Assembly: GCF_024220515.1 (NCBI RefSeq)
Contig: NZ_JAMXOT010000134.1
Coordinates: 1-45,252, forward strand
DNA: 45,252 bases
DNA from: Oscillatoria sp. HE19RPO
GTDB lineage: Bacteria > Cyanobacteriota > Cyanobacteriia > Cyanobacteriales > Laspinemataceae
Direction of reading: 5' to 3'
The notes beneath the pieces were generated by a model, which was given only the letters and a program-made list of their open reading frames with translations, ran no database searches and had not been told where the DNA came from. The stretch's first letter is position 1, and the number at the start of each line of letters is the position of its first letter. The translations under genes were made by a program, and so were the position numbers. Of this stretch, positions 6,542-33,300 are shown piece by piece.

Positions 6542-6662
6542 AATCCGGTTGGTCAAAGTAGGTTTTCGCTTTTAGCCCGCGCAGGCACCGCTTCGTCCTG
6601 TGAGCCTCCACCATGCACGGGTGCGGGCTTTTACAGACCTTGAGCAACCGGATTTGGGCTTA
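6535..6662. mobile_element. MITE-like element with terminal inverted repeats
   Basis: About 128 nt, bounded by ATACCAAATCCGGTT and AACCGGATTTGGG as imperfect inverted ends. Inside are an AGCCCGCGCAGGC hairpin region and a GCACGGGTGCGGGC region. The same order recurs at 22047-22169, with a half copy at 41112-41173. It carries no protein. Its right end overlaps the TAA stop (6660-6662) of the stress protein gene on the minus strand. Confidence 0.65.
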
Positions 6663-7487
6663 GGTCGAAGTCCGACCTAATAACACCGGACAGTTGGCAT
6701 AAACCCGTACATAGTCGGAGAGAGACCCTCCTAAGAGGCGATCGAGGTCCACAAAGCTTTTAGCAATGTTCGGACGGCGATCGGGAGACCCCAACATCAC
6801 CAAATCCGCATTCAAATCATCCGCCAAACGACAGATTTCTTCTCCCGCTTTGCCAGTTGGGGTGTGGCAGCGATAGGAAACGCCATATTTCTTCGCCTGC
6901 GCCACCGCTGCGGCTAATACCGGGTCCTGTTCCGGGTTGTCCACGGCTTTTGAAGCCACATGGACCAACTCCAACTGTCCCCCATCAATATCTTTGACCA
7001 TCATCAGGGCCAAATCCAGGCACTGCTTGGCGGAGTCCGATTTATCCACGGCCACGATCACGCGCCGGATTTTCTTAACGTACACATCATCTTTGACCAG
7101 CAACATCGGACGGGAAGCAAGCTGGAAGACGTACTGACTCACGGATCCTTCTAAAATCGCTTGCAAACGTCCCAAGGCCCGGGACCCCATCACAATCAGG
7201 TCGGCATTTTCTTCCTCGGCCACTTCACAAACCACGCTTTTTGGGTCTCCCTGCTTCAAACGGGGATTGACTTTGCTCGGGTCGATGTTCAAAAATTTGA
7301 CCGCATCAGCGAGGATTTTGCCACCTTCTGCCAACTTATCCGACATGGCATCAGCGGTGACTTCTGGGGCCACCACGTGCAGGACCGTCACTGAGGCAGT
7401 TTGAAACGAGGGGATGTCCATCAACATCTTAACCATCTCTTCACAGAGTCCTCGTCCGGCCACTGCCACTAATATTTTTTGGATCAT
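6660..7487 (-). CDS. Universal stress protein with two UspA domains
   Basis: A 275-residue cytosolic protein built of two UspA folds (about 1-135 and 140-275). Both begin with a beta strand of the MIQKILVAV / IRRVIVAVDKS type and end with CPVLL-like or RPMLLV strands. The phosphate loop of the first domain reads VMGSRALGRLQAILEGSVS and that of the second LGSPDRRPN...LGGSLSDYV, both close to but not exactly the ATP-binding consensus G-x2-G-x9-G(S/T). ATG at 7487 has AGGAG 8 nt upstream. The 3' end is defined by a MITE-like repeat. The specific stress role is not predictable. Confidence 0.9.
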   Translation of the reverse strand: MIQKILVAVAGRGLCEEMVKMLMDIPSFQTASVTVLHVVAPEVTADAMSDKLAEGGKILADAVKFLNIDPSKVNPRLKQGDPKSVVCEVAEEENADLIVMGSRALGRLQAILEGSVSQYVFQLASRPMLLVKDDVYVKKIRRVIVAVDKSDSAKQCLDLALMMVKDIDGGQLELVHVASKAVDNPEQDPVLAAAVAQAKKYGVSYRCHTPTGKAGEEICRLADDLNADLVMLGSPDRRPNIAKSFVDLDRLLGGSLSDYVRVYANCPVLLGRTST

Positions 7488-7682
7488 AAGTTTAGCTCCT
7501 GGCTACAACAGCATACTATGTAGGGATGAATCCCTGAATGGATTCCGTTTCGGGGAACGCTCTATGGGTCGAGGTCAACGACCCCAGAGATTGCTCGATT
7601 TAGGGATTTCATCTTTAATAATGTAAGACTTATTACTTACTGAAAATTTGTAGAAATGTAGAGTTTTGGATCGATTTGTAAC

Positions 7683-8171
7683 ATGGCTGAGGAAAAAGAG
7701 ACACAACCCCAACTCCCCCCCACCCAGGCGATCGCCCGTCTTGGCGAAAAATCCCCGGAAGGATGGTTTGAGTACCCCGTCCGGGCTTATCCCCATCATA
7801 CGGACTATGCGGGGATCGTTTGGCATGGCACCTACTTAATCTGGATGGAAGAGGCGCGAGTCGAATCCTTGCGGGCGATCGGGGTCAATTTTGCCGATTT
7901 AGTCGCCCTGGGGTGCGATTTACCCGTGGTGGAGTTAGCCTTGCGCTACCACAAACCCATGAAACTCGGCACCGAAGCCGTTGTCCGAACCCGGATGCTA
8001 GAAATGGATGGGGTCCGCCTCAATTGGGAATATCAGATTCAGTCCCTCAATGGACAAGAGTTGTACCTCACCGGAGTGGTTACTCTAGTCACCGTGGATA
8101 TCGAAAAAGGCCGCATCATGCGCCGCTTACCTGAATCCGTCAAAGATGCCCTAGTTAAATTATCTCGGTAG
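7683..8171 (+). CDS. Hotdog-fold acyl-CoA thioesterase (YbgC/FadM-like)
   Basis: The 162-residue protein hydrolyses acyl-CoA or acyl-ACP thioesters if it follows its family. The signature HTDYAGIVWHGTYLIWMEEA begins at residue 39, with Asp41 as the expected catalytic residue and His48 nearby. The rest (LRYHKPMKLGTEAVVRT, VTLVTVD) fits a single hotdog domain. It does not resemble the cyanobacterial DHNA-CoA hydrolase of phylloquinone synthesis, so substrate is unknown. ATG at 7683 has no clear ribosome-binding site. The reading frame ends exactly where a GGGAGAT-type purine repeat starts. Confidence 0.85.
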   Translation: MAEEKETQPQLPPTQAIARLGEKSPEGWFEYPVRAYPHHTDYAGIVWHGTYLIWMEEARVESLRAIGVNFADLVALGCDLPVVELALRYHKPMKLGTEAVVRTRMLEMDGVRLNWEYQIQSLNGQELYLTGVVTLVTVDIEKGRIMRRLPESVKDALVKLSR

Positions 8172-8458
8172 GGGAGATGGGGGAGATGGGGGAGATGGGG
8201 GAGATAGGGGAGATGGGGGAGATGTTCGTAGTAACGACTTCAGTCGTTACCGCGTGACGTAAGCTACCGCTTACGTCACGCCCCTTTGGATGCTCTGCCT
8301 CCAGTCCCCAAGCAGGCACTTCAGCCACCAATTTTGCGTGTCACGGCTTCCGCAGTGACACGAGAGCAACGACTGAAGTCGTTACTACAAACTATCTCCC
8401 CAATCCTCCCCATCTTCCCAATCCTCCCCATCCTCCCAATCCTCCCCATCTCCCCAAG
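8172..8458. repeat. Nested inverted-repeat block between thioesterase and unknown gene
   Basis: From outside in: a (GGGGGAGAT)n purine tract at 8172-8223 opposed by a CTCCCCATC-type pyrimidine tract at 8393-8458; then the 168-nt element described separately. The pyrimidine tract resembles the reverse complement of the purine tract, so the whole spacer could form one very long hairpin. No gene is visible in it. Confidence 0.75.
8224..8392 (+). mobile_element. Two-hairpin element bounded by inverted 25-nt repeats (copy 1)
   Basis: The ends are the 25-nt repeat at 8224-8248 and its reverse complement at 8368-8392. Inside is hairpin A (CGTGACGTAAGC at 8253-8264 pairs perfectly with 8269-8280), an 18-nt linker, a 22-nt core at 8299-8320 (CTCCAGTC...CAGG..CT), a 16-nt linker and hairpin B (CGTGTCAC at 8337-8344 with 8355-8362). 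Copy 2 at 17159-17326 has the same plan in reverse. It has no coding capacity. Confidence 0.75.
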
Positions 8459-8515
8459 GTGATAAAATTTGGGTTAGCCAATCCGACTAAACCCAACCTG
8501 ACTGACCCCAACATC

Positions 8516-8968
8516 ATGACTCGTTTACTTTACGAATATTCCATCGCCGATTGCGGTCACTTGATCATTCCTTATGTGTTTGGCACCGTTGATACGGACC
8601 GAATCTATTCCTATCACTTACTCTCCGAATTAGGACATCGGGGGAACCTCCATAAAGCCCATAATCCCGCCGGAATTCATTCCAGTAGCCTCGAAGGGAT
8701 TATTGCGATCGCCAAAGAACATCTGGATCTTCATTCTGATGTCGAAGAAACTCTGGATATGTTTAAACGTCGCTATACTTATCGCGAAAATTTAATTATT
8801 ATTTATCAAATGGCCGACAAGTTTTTTTATGACCATTATAAGCCCGATAATTTACAAAATGTCGCCGCGCCTAAAATCTTCAAATCAGAACAAGCCTGTA
8901 TTCACTGGGTTAAATCAGGACTCGATCGCCCCAATCAAGGCTCTAATGTTTTAGATTTTAGACGATAG
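8516..8968 (+). CDS. Conserved-looking protein of unknown function
   Basis: I do not recognise this 150-residue protein (MTRLLYEYSIADCGHLIIPY...). It is soluble, without signal or membrane segments, and rich in His, Tyr and Asp; one stretch reads SELGHRGNLHKAHNPAGIHS, another RRYTYRENLIIIYQMADKFF. ATG at 8516 is preferred over an upstream GTG at 8459 because the intervening residues are low in complexity and begin inside a repeat tract. Codon use, including a GCGATCGCC site, is like the neighbours, so recent transfer is not indicated. Confidence 0.7.
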   Translation: MTRLLYEYSIADCGHLIIPYVFGTVDTDRIYSYHLLSELGHRGNLHKAHNPAGIHSSSLEGIIAIAKEHLDLHSDVEETLDMFKRRYTYRENLIIIYQMADKFFYDHYKPDNLQNVAAPKIFKSEQACIHWVKSGLDRPNQGSNVLDFRR

Positions 8969-9005
8969 AAAATTCCCGTATAATTAATTATTATTTCAGG
9001 GGGAG

Positions 9006-9113
9006 AACGACTGAAGTCGTTACTACGAACGAGAGAAATGAAGTATTTCTCCCCTGTTTGTAGTAACGACTTCAGTCGTTTCAGGCATTTCCAGGCTCGG
9101 CCTGGGAATGCCT
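9006..9113. repeat. Outward-facing 25-nt repeat pair plus hairpin
   Basis: A minus-orientation 25-nt repeat at 9006-9030 and a plus-orientation one at 9056-9080 flank 25 nt. This is the opposite arrangement to the inward-facing ends of the elements at 8224 and 17159. A separate hairpin follows, 9083-9096 pairing with 9100-9113 with one G-T pair, of the GGCATT-CCAGGC type common in cyanobacterial spacers. Confidence 0.75.
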
Positions 9114-27409: not shown

Positions 27410-27688
27410 TCTCCTGTTTCCCCCTTAGCTGGTTGCCGTCCCAAAATGAGTTTAACCGTTAACTATGCTAAACGCGCAGGTGTTCCCCGGAAAAACTCAG
27501 GCGGGGCATTTTTGAGCCTGCTGACGGATCTGCAATCCCGAGACTAGGTTTTGAGACTTAGCCTTTACCCCGTCTGGGTTTCGGGTTCGATTGAGATGGC
27601 TCGGTCCTCCCTAACCTCTGATTATTCTACAGCACCCCGATGATGATAAGGGGCCTATGCTGGTGCAAAACTGTTCCCGGATTGTTCT

Positions 27689-28258
27689 CTAGCTAGAACG
27701 AGGGCGATCGGGAATCGGTAACCCATACAAAAATAGATGTAAAATTTCTAAGGGACACAGGGGAGGGCTAGGAATCATCAAATCATCATGTCCGGGATGA
27801 AGATGAAATCTGATTCCTCGCTTATCATTATCATGACCAGGGGTATTGAGGTCAAAACGGAGAAATTTAACCGAAAAATCGTCAGGAAAGCGAAATTCAA
27901 AGTTAAATCCCAGAACTTGCGCCTGTTTGGGATTTTCGTCGATGAGAATGGCAAAATCAAACCAACAGCGATCGGCTCGTTCAAAATGAGGAAGGTCTCG
28001 AATGCGCTTAAAGTTTCTCTGCCCTCCCATAATCTCAGAGACTCCCTTACCATGCTGTCCGGATTTTTCTAATTTTAGTAACTTGTAAATTTCATGAGGT
28101 TTGGTTTTTAAAAGCTGTTCATCCGAGGCTTTAGTCAGTGTTTTTAATATTTGATTCTTAAAGATTTTAGCACTTTTAATATCAGTTTCTGGGGTAGCCT
28201 GCCCGAGTCTCTCTTGAATCTCCTGACCCATTTTTTCCCAACCACTGTTACCGCTCAA
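27689..28258 (-). CDS. Third gene of NTPase cassette, unknown
   Basis: A 189-residue soluble protein I cannot assign. The C-terminal half carries FLRFDLNTPGHDNDKRGIRF, then HLHPGHDDLMIPSPPLCPLE and ILHLFLYGL, a His/Asp-rich pattern similar in style to several small accessory proteins of toxin or defence loci; this is resemblance only. The start is TTG at 28258: GGGAGG lies 6 nt upstream inside the preceding gene, and the 11-nt overlap with that gene's stop (28248-28250) implies translational coupling. An ATG nine codons later is the alternative. The N-terminal half (about 1-75) is charged and helical. Confidence 0.7.
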   Translation of the reverse strand: MSGNSGWEKMGQEIQERLGQATPETDIKSAKIFKNQILKTLTKASDEQLLKTKPHEIYKLLKLEKSGQHGKGVSEIMGGQRNFKRIRDLPHFERADRCWFDFAILIDENPKQAQVLGFNFEFRFPDDFSVKFLRFDLNTPGHDNDKRGIRFHLHPGHDDLMIPSPPLCPLEILHLFLYGLPIPDRPRSS

Positions 28259-28862
28259 TGAGGTCCTCCCGATCTAGAAGAACAAGCCATTCCCCATATT
28301 CAGGTTCTGTGGGTAATTCTTTAGCTTCTGCAAGGGCAATCACTTCGGCATCTGACTGTCCAGACCATTCTCGCAGTGCAGATAATCGCCCTTCTCGTTC
28401 GGCATCGGTGAGCAAGTCTGCACCATGATTTAATGCATAAACTCTAGGACTCAACCAACTAAAAAAATTTGGAGCATTGGTCCCGATCACCCGAAGAGAT
28501 TGCGAAGATAAAATGACCACTCCTCCCCGCCCTTTGTGGTTTAACCGGCTTCTGAGACTGTCGAGATGACGCCAATCATTAGGGTTCCAAGTTTCCAAAT
28601 TCCACAGCAGTAGATAATCAGCCACGGAGTTATGAATGCGCTCAAAGACTGCACTCACTCCACTCTCCCCAGAAATGCTATCGACTTCGCACTCCACCAA
28701 AATTTCAATCCCCGCTTGTAGATCTTCCAGAACTTCATCAACATTTGAATTGGTCACTACAAGACTCGACCAAATATTACTGTCAGGCTGGGATCTAACT
28801 CTCTGCAAAAATTCATCCAGAGAAACTGAAGTAATTTCATTATCCGATACTAATTTTGCCAT
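28248..28862 (-). CDS. Second gene of NTPase cassette, NTPase-like partner without P-loop
   Basis: The 204-residue protein has no Walker A motif. Its middle reads ADYLLLWNLETWNPNDWRHL, then LRSRLNHKGRGGVVILSS and APNFFSWLSPRVYAL. From memory this resembles the distal half of STAND-type NTPase domains, where a strand after a Walker-B-like region precedes an APxFWSW motif. A possible reading is a nucleotide-free partner of the upstream NTPase. It begins 12 nt after that gene stops and overlaps the next gene. Nothing indicates export. Confidence 0.65.
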   Translation of the reverse strand: MAKLVSDNEITSVSLDEFLQRVRSQPDSNIWSSLVVTNSNVDEVLEDLQAGIEILVECEVDSISGESGVSAVFERIHNSVADYLLLWNLETWNPNDWRHLDSLRSRLNHKGRGGVVILSSQSLRVIGTNAPNFFSWLSPRVYALNHGADLLTDAEREGRLSALREWSGQSDAEVIALAEAKELPTEPEYGEWLVLLDREDLIER

Positions 28863-28873
28863 CCAAGCTAATT

Positions 28874-30085
28874 CTATACTGTACTTTTTATGATTAAAGG
28901 TGAAAGTGCCGGATGAACAGCATGGCGCAGTTCTGGATATATATATTCTAAAATCTTTCCTTCGACCAGTAATTTAATATCTTCCTCAGTTCTGGGAAGA
29001 AATTTGCCTTCTTTTGAAACTCGCTCCATCTTATCAAGCGCTTCATCTGATATTCCAAACACTTTGGCTCGCCCAAATGACTGAGCAGCAGCCTCAACAT
29101 GAGCTTCGTTCAAATTATCGATACCGGATAAATAAGCTTCCTGAATAGCAGATTGAGTTAGGTTCATCAAGTCCCGCAACATTCCCCCAGAATAAAGAAT
29201 AAGGCGTTCTACTGAAGATTGATCCAGAAACCCTTCTGATGCGCGAACGGCCAGAATTTTGGCAAAAAAATCACGAGCATCTGGGTCCTTGGTAACATCA
29301 AAACACGGTTGATAATAAACGGAGTTAACTAAACTCTCAAAACGGGTTTTATATTGGCTGTAAGCCGCCTGTATTGGGCCAACTAAAACTACTCCTATTC
29401 CCTGGTCAGATAAAACTTTAATATCTTGAATAAGTTCCAAGAAAAGTTTATCTTCATAGAGGCGATCTAACCCATCCAACAATAGCACGATTGTCCCATA
29501 CTTTTCGGATAAAATTTGTTTTATCGAATTTATGGCGGCTAGTAATTTTTGAATTTCTTCAGGTACTTTTGGTCCAACTGGAATAATTCCTTTACGTTCT
29601 ACTACCCTAACTCTCTCTCCAGAGGAATCGTAGCCCTCATCAGAATCATCCAACAGACTCTCATAAATATTCTCCTTATAACCATAAGCCAATTTGCGAA
29701 TGGTTGCTATAGATTTATGCATATTTTCCTTGTCACTGTCTGATACAAGTTCAGATATAGCCACCCCAGCCATTGCAATTAGCACTCCGGGCTTCATCTG
29801 AGAAATATCGGCTTCCAAGCTGACATCAAGATAATGAGCGTAGGTATCTTCTAATTCGTTGATGCGATCGCGAGCGATTAATAGCTCAGTTGTTTTCCCT
29901 GATCCAATGCCACCAATTAACAAATGGGTAGAAGCAGGGCGAATCGCAATTCGTCCAGCGATCGTGTCTGCCAGGGATTTTTTTGGATGGGGTACATAGT
30001 GACCCCGTTCGACCGATCGCGCTGGATCTGCTGAACCCTCAAAAGCAGCCATTTCTTTTCTAAACCGCTCAAGTCTATTAGACAT
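28874..30085 (-). CDS. P-loop NTPase, first gene of a three-gene cassette
   Basis: The 403-residue protein has Walker A in LLIGGIGSGKTTELLIARDR (about residues 55-74) and Walker B in TIVLLLDGLDRL (about 200-211). A sensor-like strand GIGVVLVGPIQA follows. It fits the broad AAA/STAND or Orc-like group used in regulatory and defence systems, but no exact family is recognised. The C-terminal part (about 290-403) is helical and may bind a partner or DNA. The start region MSNRLERFRKEMAAFEGSAD is followed by HYVPHPKKSLADTIAGRI, typical of a pre-P-loop segment. It leads a compact minus-strand operon with two unknown partners. Confidence 0.82.
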   Translation of the reverse strand: MSNRLERFRKEMAAFEGSADPARSVERGHYVPHPKKSLADTIAGRIAIRPASTHLLIGGIGSGKTTELLIARDRINELEDTYAHYLDVSLEADISQMKPGVLIAMAGVAISELVSDSDKENMHKSIATIRKLAYGYKENIYESLLDDSDEGYDSSGERVRVVERKGIIPVGPKVPEEIQKLLAAINSIKQILSEKYGTIVLLLDGLDRLYEDKLFLELIQDIKVLSDQGIGVVLVGPIQAAYSQYKTRFESLVNSVYYQPCFDVTKDPDARDFFAKILAVRASEGFLDQSSVERLILYSGGMLRDLMNLTQSAIQEAYLSGIDNLNEAHVEAAAQSFGRAKVFGISDEALDKMERVSKEGKFLPRTEEDIKLLVEGKILEYIYPELRHAVHPALSPLIIKSTV

Positions 30086-30253
30086 ATATAATACGGCGAG
30101 TGCTTGATGTTGGATTAAATATTATTCTAGCTTAACAGTGCGATGAATAGATTTAGTTTGAAGAGACCCTCTCTATCTCCCTCTTGCCAAGAGTAAGCCT
30201 CAGAGGGGAACAAGAAGCCTAACAGGACTTAAGCAGATTTTGAGAATTCACCG

Positions 30254-30291
30254 TAAATGTAGAGGCGATTCGCGAATCGCCTCTACATTTA
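30254..30291. repeat. Perfect 38-bp palindrome
   Basis: TAAATGTAGAGGCGATTCG and its complement, the same core as at 10252 and 10421. It is preceded by about 30 nt (GGACTTAAGCAGATTTTGAG...) that also precede the copy at 10252, so the unit is larger than the palindrome. Confidence 0.85.
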
Positions 30292-30363
30292 CCGGAACTG
30301 TTAGAGGCTTAATGCCACTACTTCAACAGTTTTGCTGAGATTAACGTTCCGCTTCCAAAAGGT

Positions 30364-33300
30364 CTATTTAGAGACATTTGGAGCATCGGACCAACTTTCA
30401 AAGAAATTATCCAGGGTGGGATTGGCGAGGTCATCATCGGGGGAGATGGGGACCTCGGGCTGTTCTGGCTCAGGTTCGGGAGCTGCTGGTGTCATGGCCT
30501 CATCCATATCATCCATGAAGTCAGCGAAAAAATCTTCAACTGTCTCATGGTTGACATCTTCCTCCGCTGTGACTTTGACCACTGGAGGAGGATTGGTTGC
30601 CATTAGTTCGGCAAAAATATCATCTAAGGTGGGCAAAACATTGTTCGATCGCCCCGTTACCTCGGATTTACTGTCACCGTTGGGACTAGAAGACCCAGGG
30701 GTTGGTCTAGAGACGGTTTTCTGGGAGTTTGACTGAGTTTTAGAATTTCCAGTCGGTTTCCGCCCGGTTTCACTGGGGGAGGGGGGTTCCTTCTCCGGGG
30801 TCAAGTCGGATGCGAGTCCGATCGCATTCTGGTCCAGGTCCCCTGCCTCCCAGAGTAAGTCTCCTCCATCGGTATCTAAGGGGTCTGTTGGTGCATCCGT
30901 GGAAGAGACCTCTCCCCAAACCCCTCCCCTTGGAGGGGAGGGGCTTTGAGGGTCTTTCGGTTGGGGGTCTGTTGGTGCATCCGTGGAAGAGACCTCTCCC
31001 CAAACCCCTCCCCTTGGAGGGGAGGGGCTTTGAGGGTCTTTGGGTTGGGGGTCTGTGGGTGAATCCGTGGAAGAGACCTCTCCCCAAACCCCTCCCCTCC
31101 CAGGGGAGGGGCTTTGAGGCTCTGCGGGTTGGGGGGTTAGGTCCGATTGACCCACAAAATCATCTAAGGAAGCTTCTCCACTTTCTTCCCAAGGCAGGGT
31201 GCTATCCAACTCCTCTAAGCTGCTTGACTCGGATAACGGGGGTTCAGCAGCGAGGTCCTCCAGCCATTGTTCGGCGCTTAACTCGGTCTCCGGCAAGTCC
31301 GAGGGGTCCGGACTTGCGCTTTTGGCTTCTGCTTCCTCTAATTTAGAAAGGTCCTCATCTAAGCGTTTAATGCCGGTATTACTCAGCCAAAGATTATCGA
31401 GGTCCTCCTCTAGGTCCTCGTCGGGCAGTAAATCTTCTTGAGGGGAAGCCTGGATATAGGCGTTTTCGTCCCAGTCTCCTTCTAAATCTAGGTCCGAGGC
31501 AGTCGCCTCTTCCTCAAATTCGGGCAGCCAATCCTCCATCAAGGAAGCGGCTGTCTCCTCGACCATTTCCGGGTCTGGGTCCGGTAACGCTGCCGGTTCT
31601 GGGGAGACTGCGGTTGCCTCGGAAACCGTTTTAAAATCAGCAAATAAATCGTCTGTGGGTTCCTCGGTTGAGGTGCCTGGGGGTTCGGGTTCCTTGGGGG
31701 GTTCGGTCTTCTGGGGTGGAGGAGGGGAGTTGGTTTCTGAAGCCGATCGCGGATTAGTAATTTCTTCGGGAATAGCAGGGTCCGACTCGGTGAGTAGGGA
31801 CTCTAGGCGATCGCCAAACAGAAACTCATCCATATAGTCTTCTGAATACTCGCCCCCCATTCCTGGGGCATCCGTGCGACTCTCCAGGTCCGCAAATAAG
31901 TCATCCTCGCCATAGGGGGAGGTTTCCTGAGTCTCATCCCTGTTCGATTCTTCACTGAGGGCAAATAAATCCCCATCCCCCGACTCCGGGATCAAATCCG
32001 ATGGGGGAGGGAGATTTTCTTCGAGTTCCAAACCCTCGGACAACTCCCAATTTTCGGGCAAGTCATCATCTGGCGTAACCCACCCCTCCATGTCTAATTC
32101 CGGCAGGTTCTCGAAGTCCAGATCCGACGTAGCATTTGGGGGATTTTCCGGAGCGATCGCCTCGGACAACTCCTCTTGCTGAGAACTCTCGGCCCATTGT
32201 GCAGCCAGTTCAAAGTTGTCTTGAGACATTTCCAACCGAGACTTAGGGACTATTTGAGGGGCTATCTCCGTTGCCCGATCGGGTTCCGGGGATGCCTCTG
32301 GGGTTTCATCCTTTTCTACCTCCATTGGCGGGGTTAATTCTGCTCCAGCAAAGGGGAAGGTAAGCAGTTCAGGGCTCTCTTCCAGGGAGAGTTCAGATGC
32401 GGAGGGTGGGGCAGAAACTTGGGGGGTTTGAGGCGGCTTTTGGCGGGGAGATCCAGGCTGGGTTTTACTCTGAGGTTCGGGTTGGACAGAGGGTTTAGAG
32501 TCTGATTTTGGAGGGTTCGGTGGAGTGGGAGGGGATTTGATGCCATCGCCCGCAGAGTCTAGGTTAGAGGGTTCGGGGTCTGATTTCGGGGGGGAATCCT
32601 GCTCCTTTGCGATCGCCGCTTGAGTCGAAGAAAGCAGTCGCAGGGATGATTTTAAATAGGAGGAGGTCTCTTGACCTAAGAGTTGGGCCAGGTGATTGAC
32701 CAAGGCACTAAACATCAGTTCCCCTTGCTGTCCGAGGCGATGCATCTTGTCTAAGCCTTGACCCAGGGAGTCATTGTAACTGTTAACGTTGCGTTCGAGG
32801 GCTTCAAAGACAACGCGCAGAGTAGAGTCGAGGGACATCAACAGGCGATCGGATTCCCCCTGTAACCGCTGCAACTGTTCTAATCGAGCTTCCGGGGATA
32901 ACAGTCCAGAATTCTCTATTGTGAAGGCATTGAGTTCTTCGCGGAACCTAGATTCGAGAGCGCTTGGTTCGAGGCGATCGCCAGTCCCCTCCGTTAAGAG
33001 TTGGGTTTCTATTTGGCCGATCGCCTGAGAAACCTGTTGGGAAAGGCGCTCTTGCAGGGGGCCGAGTAAGGCTTGGAGAAACTCGGCGATCGCTTGCTGT
33101 TGATGAGCCTGTTGTCCCGCGATCGCCTGGTAATGCTGTTGTCTTTGCTCCAACTGCCGGACTTCTTCCATCAGGGAATACCGCTCTTGTCGTAACGTGG
33201 CGATTTCTTCCTGTAACGGCTGCATCAGGTTAGTCCGTAACCCGCTTAAATCTTGCATCAGGGCTTGCAAAACCGCTTGAGCTTCAGCCGCTTCACTGAC

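What the first reader, a model, noticed from the sequence alone, without database searches (positions are those of the whole stretch)
27689..30085. Compact three-gene NTPase cassette of unknown function
Three minus-strand genes are joined by a 12-nt gap and then an 11-nt overlap with a TTG start that has GGGAGG 6 nt upstream. The first encodes a P-loop NTPase (GGIGSGKTT, LLLDGLDRL). The second is a P-loop-less protein resembling the distal half of an NTPase domain (APNFFSWL). The third is a small His/Asp-rich protein. The design (NTPase sensor plus two small partners) is that of many defence or signalling cassettes, yet none of the three matches a system I know.
Basis: partly seen in the sequence, partly recalled or inferred. 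Interest (0 to 1): 0.75.

Follow-up and report, generated by a model that had tools for sequence, protein, structure and literature searches.

The report
Three-gene ATPase-gated cassette of cyanobacteria
Three tightly packed genes, one encoding a working ATPase, one a dead copy of the same general fold and one an unknown protein with a weak toxin-like motif, travel together between cyanobacteria as a unit; they look like an undescribed toxin-type defence cassette, though what they do has not been tested.

Summary
The trio is real. Gene 1 is an AAA-type ATPase. Gene 2 is predicted to have an AAA+ fold but lacks a P-loop in 19 of 19 relatives. Gene 3 is an unnamed family whose C-terminal half weakly resembles TumE toxins. 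All 19 gene 3 loci found in species genomes are cyanobacterial; in 17 the three genes, or remnants, lie in the same order. Gene 3 starts at a TTG inside gene 2 in 20 of 21 loci. Three of eight same-genus genomes lack the 2.87-kb block cleanly. Where gene 1 is intact (25 genomes), gene 3 is intact in 16, broken or missing in 8, unreadable in 1; the reverse was not seen. One phage contig encodes a stand-alone 58-aa copy of gene 2's C-terminal domain. No Pfam, NCBIfam or PADLOC model names genes 2 or 3. Best reading: an ATPase-gated toxin cassette, probably antiphage, in logic like PARIS and toxin-antitoxin modules. Order, coupling, conservation and block-wise presence are shown; complex formation, toxicity and antiphage function are inferred.

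The parts
28874..30085 (-). Gene 1, 403 aa: AAA-type P-loop ATPase. Walker A GGIGSGKTT, Walker B LLLDGLDRL, SGG.LRD motif that looks like AAA+ sensor 2 (label recalled)
   Evidence: ORF; weak Pfam AAA_22/AAA_16/KAP, E 4e-4 to 4e-3, all below the curated cut-offs; residues 61-66, D204, L206, D207, R208, G300, G301 and R304 identical in 18 of 18 relatives
28248..28862 (-). Gene 2, 204 aa: P-loop-less AAA+ domain, probable inactive partner of gene 1 and likely holder of gene 3 (roles inferred)
   Evidence: Model mean pLDDT 84, pTM 0.66; best Foldseek hits Hda (E 2.3e-4) and E. coli clamp loader (5.8e-4), the 50 listed hits being AAA+ or other P-loop ATPases, TM to query 0.35-0.48; no GxxxxGK[ST] in 19 of 19; R140 in 18 of 19
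28248..28415 (-). C-terminal helical domain of gene 2 (residues 150-204); a phage contig encodes a stand-alone copy
   Evidence: hmmsearch E 8.4e-13 in phage locus L091, alignment A8; of 254 cyanobacterial genomes found in 5, all trio genomes
27689..28258 (-). Gene 3, 189 aa, TTG start: candidate effector; helical, winged-helix-like N-terminal part (inference from the model) and a C-terminal R-D-N-P-H-N...R-F-H-x-H-P motif
   Evidence: 15 of 15 identity at R134, D136, N138, P140, H142, N144, R150, F151, H152, H154, P155; no Pfam/NCBIfam/PADLOC hit, only scattered single-member Pfam hits among 15 relatives; no PDB or viral fold match at E 0.001; weak profile match to TumE
28248..28270 (-). Coupling element: GGGAGG inside the 3' end of gene 2, then the TTG start of gene 3, 11-nt overlap
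   Evidence: TTG at this place in 20 of 21 loci with the junction (exception L039), also in G389
27501..30371 (.). Extent of the 2.87-kb block present or absent as a whole
   Evidence: In G387, G388 and G391 the sequences outside 27500 and 30372 lie 10-12 nt apart

Best explanation
A horizontally exchanged, translationally coupled three-gene cassette working as an ATPase-gated toxin module, most likely against phages. Gene 1 is the active AAA+ ATPase. Gene 2 is an AAA+ domain that has lost its P-loop; it assembles with gene 1, much as the catalytically dead delta subunit does in the clamp loader, and docks the effector. Gene 3, made in step with gene 2 from a weak TTG start, is the effector and is held inactive by the gene 1/2 complex. 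A signal of infection or stress changes the nucleotide state of gene 1 and frees gene 3, which stops growth, probably by attacking RNA or translation as TumE-type toxins are proposed to do. Shown: genes, order, overlap and conserved TTG, conservation, predicted folds, block-wise presence or absence, losses that spare gene 1. Inferred: translational coupling as a mechanism, complex formation, gating, toxicity, RNA target, antiphage role.
For: Trio order in 17 of 19 gene 3 loci; the other two are L039 (contig begins inside gene 2) and L043 (gene 2 and the start of gene 3 missing). Distance matrices of the three proteins agree, Mantel r 0.86-0.91, p at or below 5e-4, 14 loci. TTG start kept in 20 of 21 loci, in two overlap registers. 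Patchy presence: gene 1 at E up to 1e-20 in 12 of 386 genomes of the phylum sample and in 5 of 8 same-genus genomes; clean empty site in the other 3. Several different chromosomal sites. Gene 2 predicted AAA+ fold without P-loop. Losses: with intact gene 1 (25 of 29 genomes), gene 3 intact 16, broken or absent 8, unreadable 1; no intact gene 3 with a broken gene 1. Gene 3/TumE profiles: P 0.0017 with 27 TumE sequences, 1 of 400 column shuffles as good, reversed control P 0.089, genes 1 and 2 as controls P 0.28. Phage-borne 58-aa copy of the gene 2 tail with its own ribosome-binding-like sequence.
Against: No experiment. The flank scan shows no recurring defence system. The TumE link is weak: PF20126 is not among the hits of the 15 gene 3 members; a first hhalign with 4 TumE sequences gave P 0.012, Prob 3.6; 13 sequences gave P 0.03 with 5 of 300 shuffles as good, and single TumE sequences were barely separated from 326 decoys, AUC 0.62. 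No fold match for gene 3. The phage fragment is one contig of unknown host. Of the 8 genomes that lost gene 3 but kept gene 1, gene 2 is intact in only 4 (L026, L027, L041, L044); in G064 it is cut, in L043 and G199 it is missing, and in G133 it was not found, so part of the pattern may simply be loss of the distal end of an operon. L026 and L027 rest on in-frame stops in fragmented assemblies, and across these copies dN/dS is still 0.28-0.72: recent breaks or assembly errors. The genomes are related, so the 8 are not independent.
Confidence: 0.42

Rival explanations
1. A three-component toxin-antitoxin or addiction module without a dedicated antiphage role: gene 2 is the antitoxin of gene 3, and gene 1 an ATP-dependent regulator or recycler.
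For: Overlap of gene 2 with a downstream gene 3 and the TumE-like motif copy the layout described for TumA-TumE (section 8 of PMC10584680). No recurring defence neighbours.
Against: Addiction predicts selection to keep the module, yet gene 3 is broken or lost while gene 1 stays in 8 of 25 genomes. The AAA+ pair is a large apparatus for a simple antitoxin. No match on 72,556 plasmid records for any of the three proteins, where addiction modules are common (recalled).
Confidence: 0.23
2. A non-toxic regulatory or nucleic-acid-handling AAA+ machine, for example a loader or stress-response complex in which gene 3 is an ordinary subunit.
For: The gene 2 model is closest to Hda and clamp-loader subunits; gene 3 has a helical N-terminal part that could be a winged helix (inference); the trio or its remains sit downstream of proA in several Nostocales, as if inherited vertically there.
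Against: No gene 1 match at E 1e-20 in 374 of 386 genomes, empty site within the genus, losses that spare gene 1.
Confidence: 0.22
3. A branch of the iSTAND/ternary conflict systems described by the Aravind group.
For: Inactive NTPase partner, and those systems are concentrated partly in cyanobacteria (passages of PMC7159879).
Against: No vWA or MoxR gene in the trio; gene 1 gives no MoxR hit in Pfam; those systems are defined by the MoxR-vWA couple.
Confidence: 0.04

Closest known systems
TumE-TumA toxin-antitoxin (DUF6516, PF20126)
   Same: Toxin gene predominantly downstream of its partner in a bicistron, translation-targeting toxin (PMC10584680, section 8); C-terminal R-[FYW]-D ... H ... 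H-x-H ... P ... EIL-like motif in the same order
   Different: Gene 3 gives no PF20126 hit, has an extra N-terminal region of about 80 aa, and its partner is an AAA+ domain with an ATPase upstream
PARIS (AriA ATPase + AriB Toprim nuclease)
   Same: ATPase holds a toxic effector and frees it on a phage signal (commentary PMC11455837, whole text read)
   Different: AriA is an ABC ATPase and AriB a Toprim nuclease; here an AAA-type ATPase, a dead AAA+ subunit and an unrelated effector candidate
P-loop ATPase Sll1717 family (NF047389) and KAP/AAA_22 ATPases
   Same: Distant relatives of gene 1 (NF047389 E 0.0013; further cyanobacterial ATPase ORFs)
   Different: Scores below curated cut-offs. In the 12 such loci looked at (L008-L019, mostly about 1.5 kb either side) no gene 2- or gene 3-like neighbour was seen by eye, and the gene 2 profile found none there at E below 0.05
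Clamp-loader delta subunit / Hda
   Same: AAA+ fold; delta lacks a working P-loop (recalled) as gene 2 does
   Different: Sequence identity in the structural alignments 7-17 percent; different operon
iSTAND ternary conflict systems
   Same: An inactive NTPase works with an active one
   Different: MoxR-vWA pair absent

Membership tests
TumE (PF20126) | Match to the family profile above cut-off | tested here: not met
   0 of 15 gene 3 proteins in the Pfam scan at E up to 10
TumE (PF20126) | Conserved C-terminal Arg/Asp/His motif and following EIL helix | tested here: inconclusive
   hhalign P 0.0017, 1 of 400 shuffles as good; weaker with smaller sets
TumE (PF20126) | Toxicity, neutralised by the upstream partner | not testable with these tools
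   Needs expression tests
AAA+ ATPase (gene 1) | Walker A and Walker B | tested here: met
   18 of 18 have GxxxxGK[ST]; D204, L206, D207, R208 18 of 18
AAA+ ATPase (gene 1) | Match above a curated family cut-off | tested here: not met
   AAA_22, AAA_16 and KAP all below cut-off; no structure was predicted for gene 1
AAA+ fold, inactive (gene 2) | AAA+ fold | tested here: met
   Predicted model; the 50 listed Foldseek hits are AAA+ or other P-loop ATPases, best E 2.3e-4, TM to query 0.35-0.48; only 2 of 1339 hits pass E 0.001
AAA+ fold, inactive (gene 2) | Loss of the P-loop | tested here: met
   0 of 19 have GxxxxGK[ST]
Known defence systems (PADLOC 2.0) | Profile match | tested here: not met
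   Gene 1 only GajB at E 0.03; genes 2 and 3 none; 0 of 19 gene 2 proteins
BREX BrxA | Shared C-terminal WL-x-L-x-R-x-DLI segment | tested here: not met
   One solved BrxA matched (E 0.022); the best of 16 cyanobacterial PF08849 loci examined (of 20 returned) scored 1.4 bits
iSTAND ternary system | MoxR-vWA couple | tested here: not met
   Not among the three genes; no such conserved pair noticed by eye among the neighbours listed

The most novel reading that the evidence does not exclude
A new antiphage system built from an active AAA+ ATPase, a dead AAA+ adaptor and a TumE-like effector, to which at least one phage answers with a 58-aa stand-alone mimic of the adaptor's C-terminal domain that blocks effector release or assembly.
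Probability: 0.2. Interest if true: 0.8.

Novelty: new variant of a known kind. Interest (0 to 1): 0.6.

Why it matters
Known ATPase-gated toxins such as PARIS pair one ATPase with one effector. Splitting the gate into an active and a dead AAA+ subunit, with the effector coupled to the dead one, would be a different way to control a lethal protein. The trio is small (2.9 kb), has natural empty-site strains, natural gene 3-less variants and a phage-borne fragment to test against it, so function is directly testable. It might also link the TumE toxin superfamily to AAA+ control.

Tried and rejected
BrxA link: one solved BrxA matched the gene 2 tail, but the 16 cyanobacterial PF08849 loci examined, of 20 returned, do not share the motif; rejected. 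A TALE-repeat chain at E 5.7e-9 sums many weak repeat matches; ignored. A Rhodococcus plasmid match to the phage fragment at E 0.9 and Aeromonas phage matches to gene 2 at E 0.2 are not significant. Plasmids: no match for any of the three proteins. Viral contigs: none for genes 1 and 3. Gene 2 as paralogue of gene 1: hhalign P 0.07, no support. Armadillo-repeat hits for gene 1 (E 0.002) come from weak repeated stretches; ignored. Acetyl-CoA decarboxylase epsilon (1ytl, E 0.0012) for gene 2 was not followed, since the fold search points to AAA+. Promoter and terminator scan of the block: not above shuffles. PHROGs: only weak hits for the three proteins, E 0.03 or worse.

Limits: the gene 3 genome scan used two peptide patterns and the viral scans one or two each, so more distant relatives, also outside Cyanobacteria, may be missed; phylum samples were 117 to 386 genomes. 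Only 25 of 122 Pfam families of the flank scan were shown. Rows merged as the same genome: L049=L029, L002=L036, L006=L041, L092=L036; L115=L028, L116=L027, L117=L026, L119=L030. Other pairs were told apart by sequence only for the pairs named in those calls, otherwise by differing tblastn identities. The flank scans used 88 of the 185 ORFs listed: the trio genes were left out, and the flanks of L026, L027, L035, L036, L042 and L043 were dropped as repeats of sites already in the set, judged by eye. The script picked unrelated TTGs in L030, L035 and L043; the TTG count uses the junctions printed for L030 and L035, and L043 has no junction. L039 gene 3 is open but has no ATG/GTG/TTG at the junction. 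Gene 1 of G133 is open to the end of its contig (residues 1-398 matched), where the contig breaks; it is counted as intact.
Full report
The finding describes three minus-strand genes at 27689-30085. The ORFs are as stated. Gene 1 (28874-30085) carries GGIGSGKTT and LLLDGLDRL; 11 nt separate its stop from the ATG of gene 2 (28248-28862); gene 3 (27689-28258) starts at a TTG inside gene 2, 6 nt after GGGAGG.

Profile searches. Gene 1 matches AAA_22, AAA_16 and KAP only weakly and below cut-off, NF047389 (Sll1717-type ATPases) at E 0.0013 and GajB at E 0.03. Genes 2 and 3 match nothing in Pfam, NCBIfam or PADLOC at E up to 1. Scanning 15 gene 3 and 19 gene 2 relatives member by member gave only scattered weak Pfam hits (best E 0.0089 and 0.0069, each in 1 to 4 members), and none for gene 2 in PADLOC.

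The trio is a unit. Gene 1 was found in 17 of 194 genomes of the phylum at E up to 1e-3, seven of them strong (E below 1e-80, window included), the rest distant ATPases; gene 3 in 5 of 194. A four-row gene 2 profile was found in 9 of 386 genomes, one of these a weak match (E 0.005) full of stops, and an 18-row gene 1 profile at E up to 1e-20 in 12 of 386. A scan of 84,980 species genomes with gene 3 gave 19 loci, all cyanobacterial by record title: Laspinema, Phormidium, Oscillatoria, Calothrix, Dolichospermum, Cuspidothrix, Cylindrospermum, Acaryochloris, Chamaesiphon, Elainella and others. In 17 of the 19 the three genes or their remnants lie in the same order and strand; L039 begins inside gene 2, and in L043 gene 2 and the start of gene 3 are missing. 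Pairwise distances of the three proteins over 14 complete loci correlate at 0.91, 0.86 and 0.91, so they move together. dN/dS for the window against L029 and L030 is 0.16-0.25; closer pairs are noisier, 0.16-0.69, with one unstable ratio of 1.75 for gene 3.

Coupling. Gene 3 starts at TTG behind a purine-rich, ribosome-binding-like sequence inside the end of gene 2 in 20 of 21 loci that show the junction, and also in G389. The overlap is 11 nt in most, 4 nt in L032, L034, L036 and L005, 14 nt in L044 and 32 nt in L038; the 4-nt overlaps are in another register, yet TTG is kept. In the four loci of the 4-nt type an ATG lies 33 nt further upstream in the same frame, so TTG is not proven there.

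Mobility. The genes flanking the trio differ between lineages: in the window a long acidic protein and an Hsp70-like protein; proA upstream in several Nostocales; elsewhere near cysS, purA/gyrA, ligA, miaB-like or hisD-like genes (most of these names are my reading of the translations). Of 8 same-genus genomes 5 carry gene 1. In the other three (G387, G388, G391) the sequences outside window positions 27500 and 30372 lie 10-12 nt apart, a clean empty site; I saw no target duplication by eye, and no integrase in the block. Of 88 flanking proteins from 13 loci, 17 PADLOC models were hit, each by at most two proteins; they include TPR, VakA, CARF, Pycsar-cyclase, SduA and candidate PDC models, which I read as generic domains rather than a recurring system. 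Of the 25 Pfam families shown (of 122), most are housekeeping or TPR, but two proteins carry CHAT domains and two are PD-(D/E)XK transposase-type nucleases, so a defence link of single neighbours is not excluded.

Losses. I counted 29 distinct genomes: the window, the 19, and G389, G382, G074, G048, G064, G133, G199, G262 and G385. Gene 1 is intact in 25 (not in L042, G262, G385; off the contig in L039; in G133 open to the contig end). Among these 25, gene 3 is intact in 16, broken or absent in 8 (L026, L027, L041, L043, L044, G064, G133, G199) and unreadable in 1 (G048, contig end). No genome has an intact gene 3 with a broken gene 1. Of the 8, gene 2 is intact in 4 (L026, L027, L041, L044), cut in G064, missing in L043 and G199, and not found in G133. 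In L044 gene 3 is split by a transposase-like gene. This is what a costly effector would show, but gene 3 is also last in the operon, the genomes are related, and L026 and L027 rest on in-frame stops in fragmented assemblies; across those two copies dN/dS is still 0.28-0.72, so the breaks are recent or are assembly errors.

Gene 2. AlphaFold2 on 19 sequences gave pLDDT 84, pTM 0.66. The 50 Foldseek hits listed are Hda, clamp-loader subunits, DnaA, PspF-type, Clp and other AAA+ or P-loop ATPases, best E 2.3e-4, TM to query 0.35-0.48; only 2 of 1339 hits pass E 0.001. None of 19 sequences has a P-loop, whereas all 18 gene 1 sequences do. R140 (18 of 19) and R104-S105 (19 of 19) are candidates for an arginine finger acting on gene 1 (role inferred, by recalled analogy with the SRC motif of clamp loaders). 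A profile comparison gives no support for gene 2 being a copy of gene 1 (P 0.07).

Gene 3. The model (pLDDT 77, residues 1-22 below 50) has two helices and two strands near residues 30-78, then a strand-rich half with invariant R134, D136, N138, P140, H142, N144, R150, F151, H152, H154 and P155 (15 of 15). No PDB or viral fold match at E 0.001. The motif order resembles TumE toxins. I first noticed this by eye, then tested it: four sequences gave P 0.012, thirteen gave P 0.03 and 5 of 300 column shuffles as good, twenty-seven gave P 0.0017 and 1 of 400. The RWD-type subset, chosen after it scored best, gave P 0.001 (1 of 400) and the RYD-type subset P 0.0035 (2 of 400). Reversed profiles and genes 1 and 2 as controls gave P 0.09-0.73. 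Single TumE sequences barely outscore 326 decoy ORFs (AUC 0.62; at least two of the decoys, from L087 and L067, were themselves TumE proteins missed by my filter). I call this a lead, not homology. TumE is described as a translation-targeting toxin with unproven RNase activity, predominantly downstream of its partner (section 8 of PMC10584680).

Phage fragment. A scan of 2.9 million viral contigs with gene 2 (one peptide pattern, 17 stretches) gave one contig, IMGVR_UViG_3300037119_011606. It encodes a 58-aa ORF (L091 5052-5228, with GGAGG upstream) between two DNA-polymerase genes. The open stretch matches the gene 2 profile at E 8.4e-13 among 8495 translated segments; the match (profile positions 128-196) begins some residues before the ATG. 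In alignment A8 the ORF is 36 percent identical to the window, and 14 columns are invariant over all 20 rows, phage included. In 254 cyanobacterial genomes this domain was found only in five trio genomes; no phage or plasmid record has a significant match. The host is unknown: the listed best relatives of its polymerase and terminase infect other bacteria or haloarchaea, or have no named host. It may be a decoy against the trio, a relic, or a domain with a wider distribution that I could not see.

Literature. Searches in open PubMed Central papers for TumE/TumA, iSTAND conflict systems, PARIS, cyanobacterial/tripartite toxin-antitoxin/AAA ATPase/defence island terms, Sll1717/DUF6516, and cyanobacterial antiphage terms (52 of 397 found papers were listed) showed no paper whose title or abstract start describes such a trio. 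I read the whole of PMC11455837, section 8 and passages of PMC10584680, and passages of PMC7159879; the others only as search listings.

Verdict. A real, mobile three-gene cassette that I found described in none of the libraries or listings searched; most likely an ATPase-gated toxin system and plausibly antiphage. Novel as a combination, built from known kinds of parts.

Noticed in passing
L091:5052-5228 (IMGVR_UViG_3300037119_011606): Phage-borne 58-aa ORF resembling the C-terminal domain of gene 2, between two genes matching two parts of a phage DNA polymerase; the next ORF of 77 aa overlaps its stop by ATGA.
   Followed up: partly
L091:3435-6851: The DNA polymerase of this phage is in two ORFs (462 and 463 aa, both matching phrog_17) with the small ORFs between them.
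   Followed up: no
L100 (G262): Gene 1 is cut after about 86 residues and followed on the other strand by a PIN-like toxin and antitoxin-like pair (my reading of the translations).
   Followed up: no
L044:4950-5939: Transposase-like gene (IS630-like by eye) inserted inside gene 3.
   Followed up: no
L030:1077-3773 and 6580-9099: In the flank scan two proteins carry CHAT domains; by length and TPR-like sequence I take them to be the two large neighbours of the trio in L030, not checked one by one.
   Followed up: no
window 30250-30290: Palindromic GAGGCGATTCGCGAATCGCCTC upstream of gene 1, present with one change in L026 but not in the stretches printed of L028 or L027; looks like a small dispersed repeat.
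   Followed up: no
window 30770-31087: The neighbouring 1050-aa acidic protein carries three near-identical repeats around QSPSPPRGGVWGEVSSTD.
   Followed up: no
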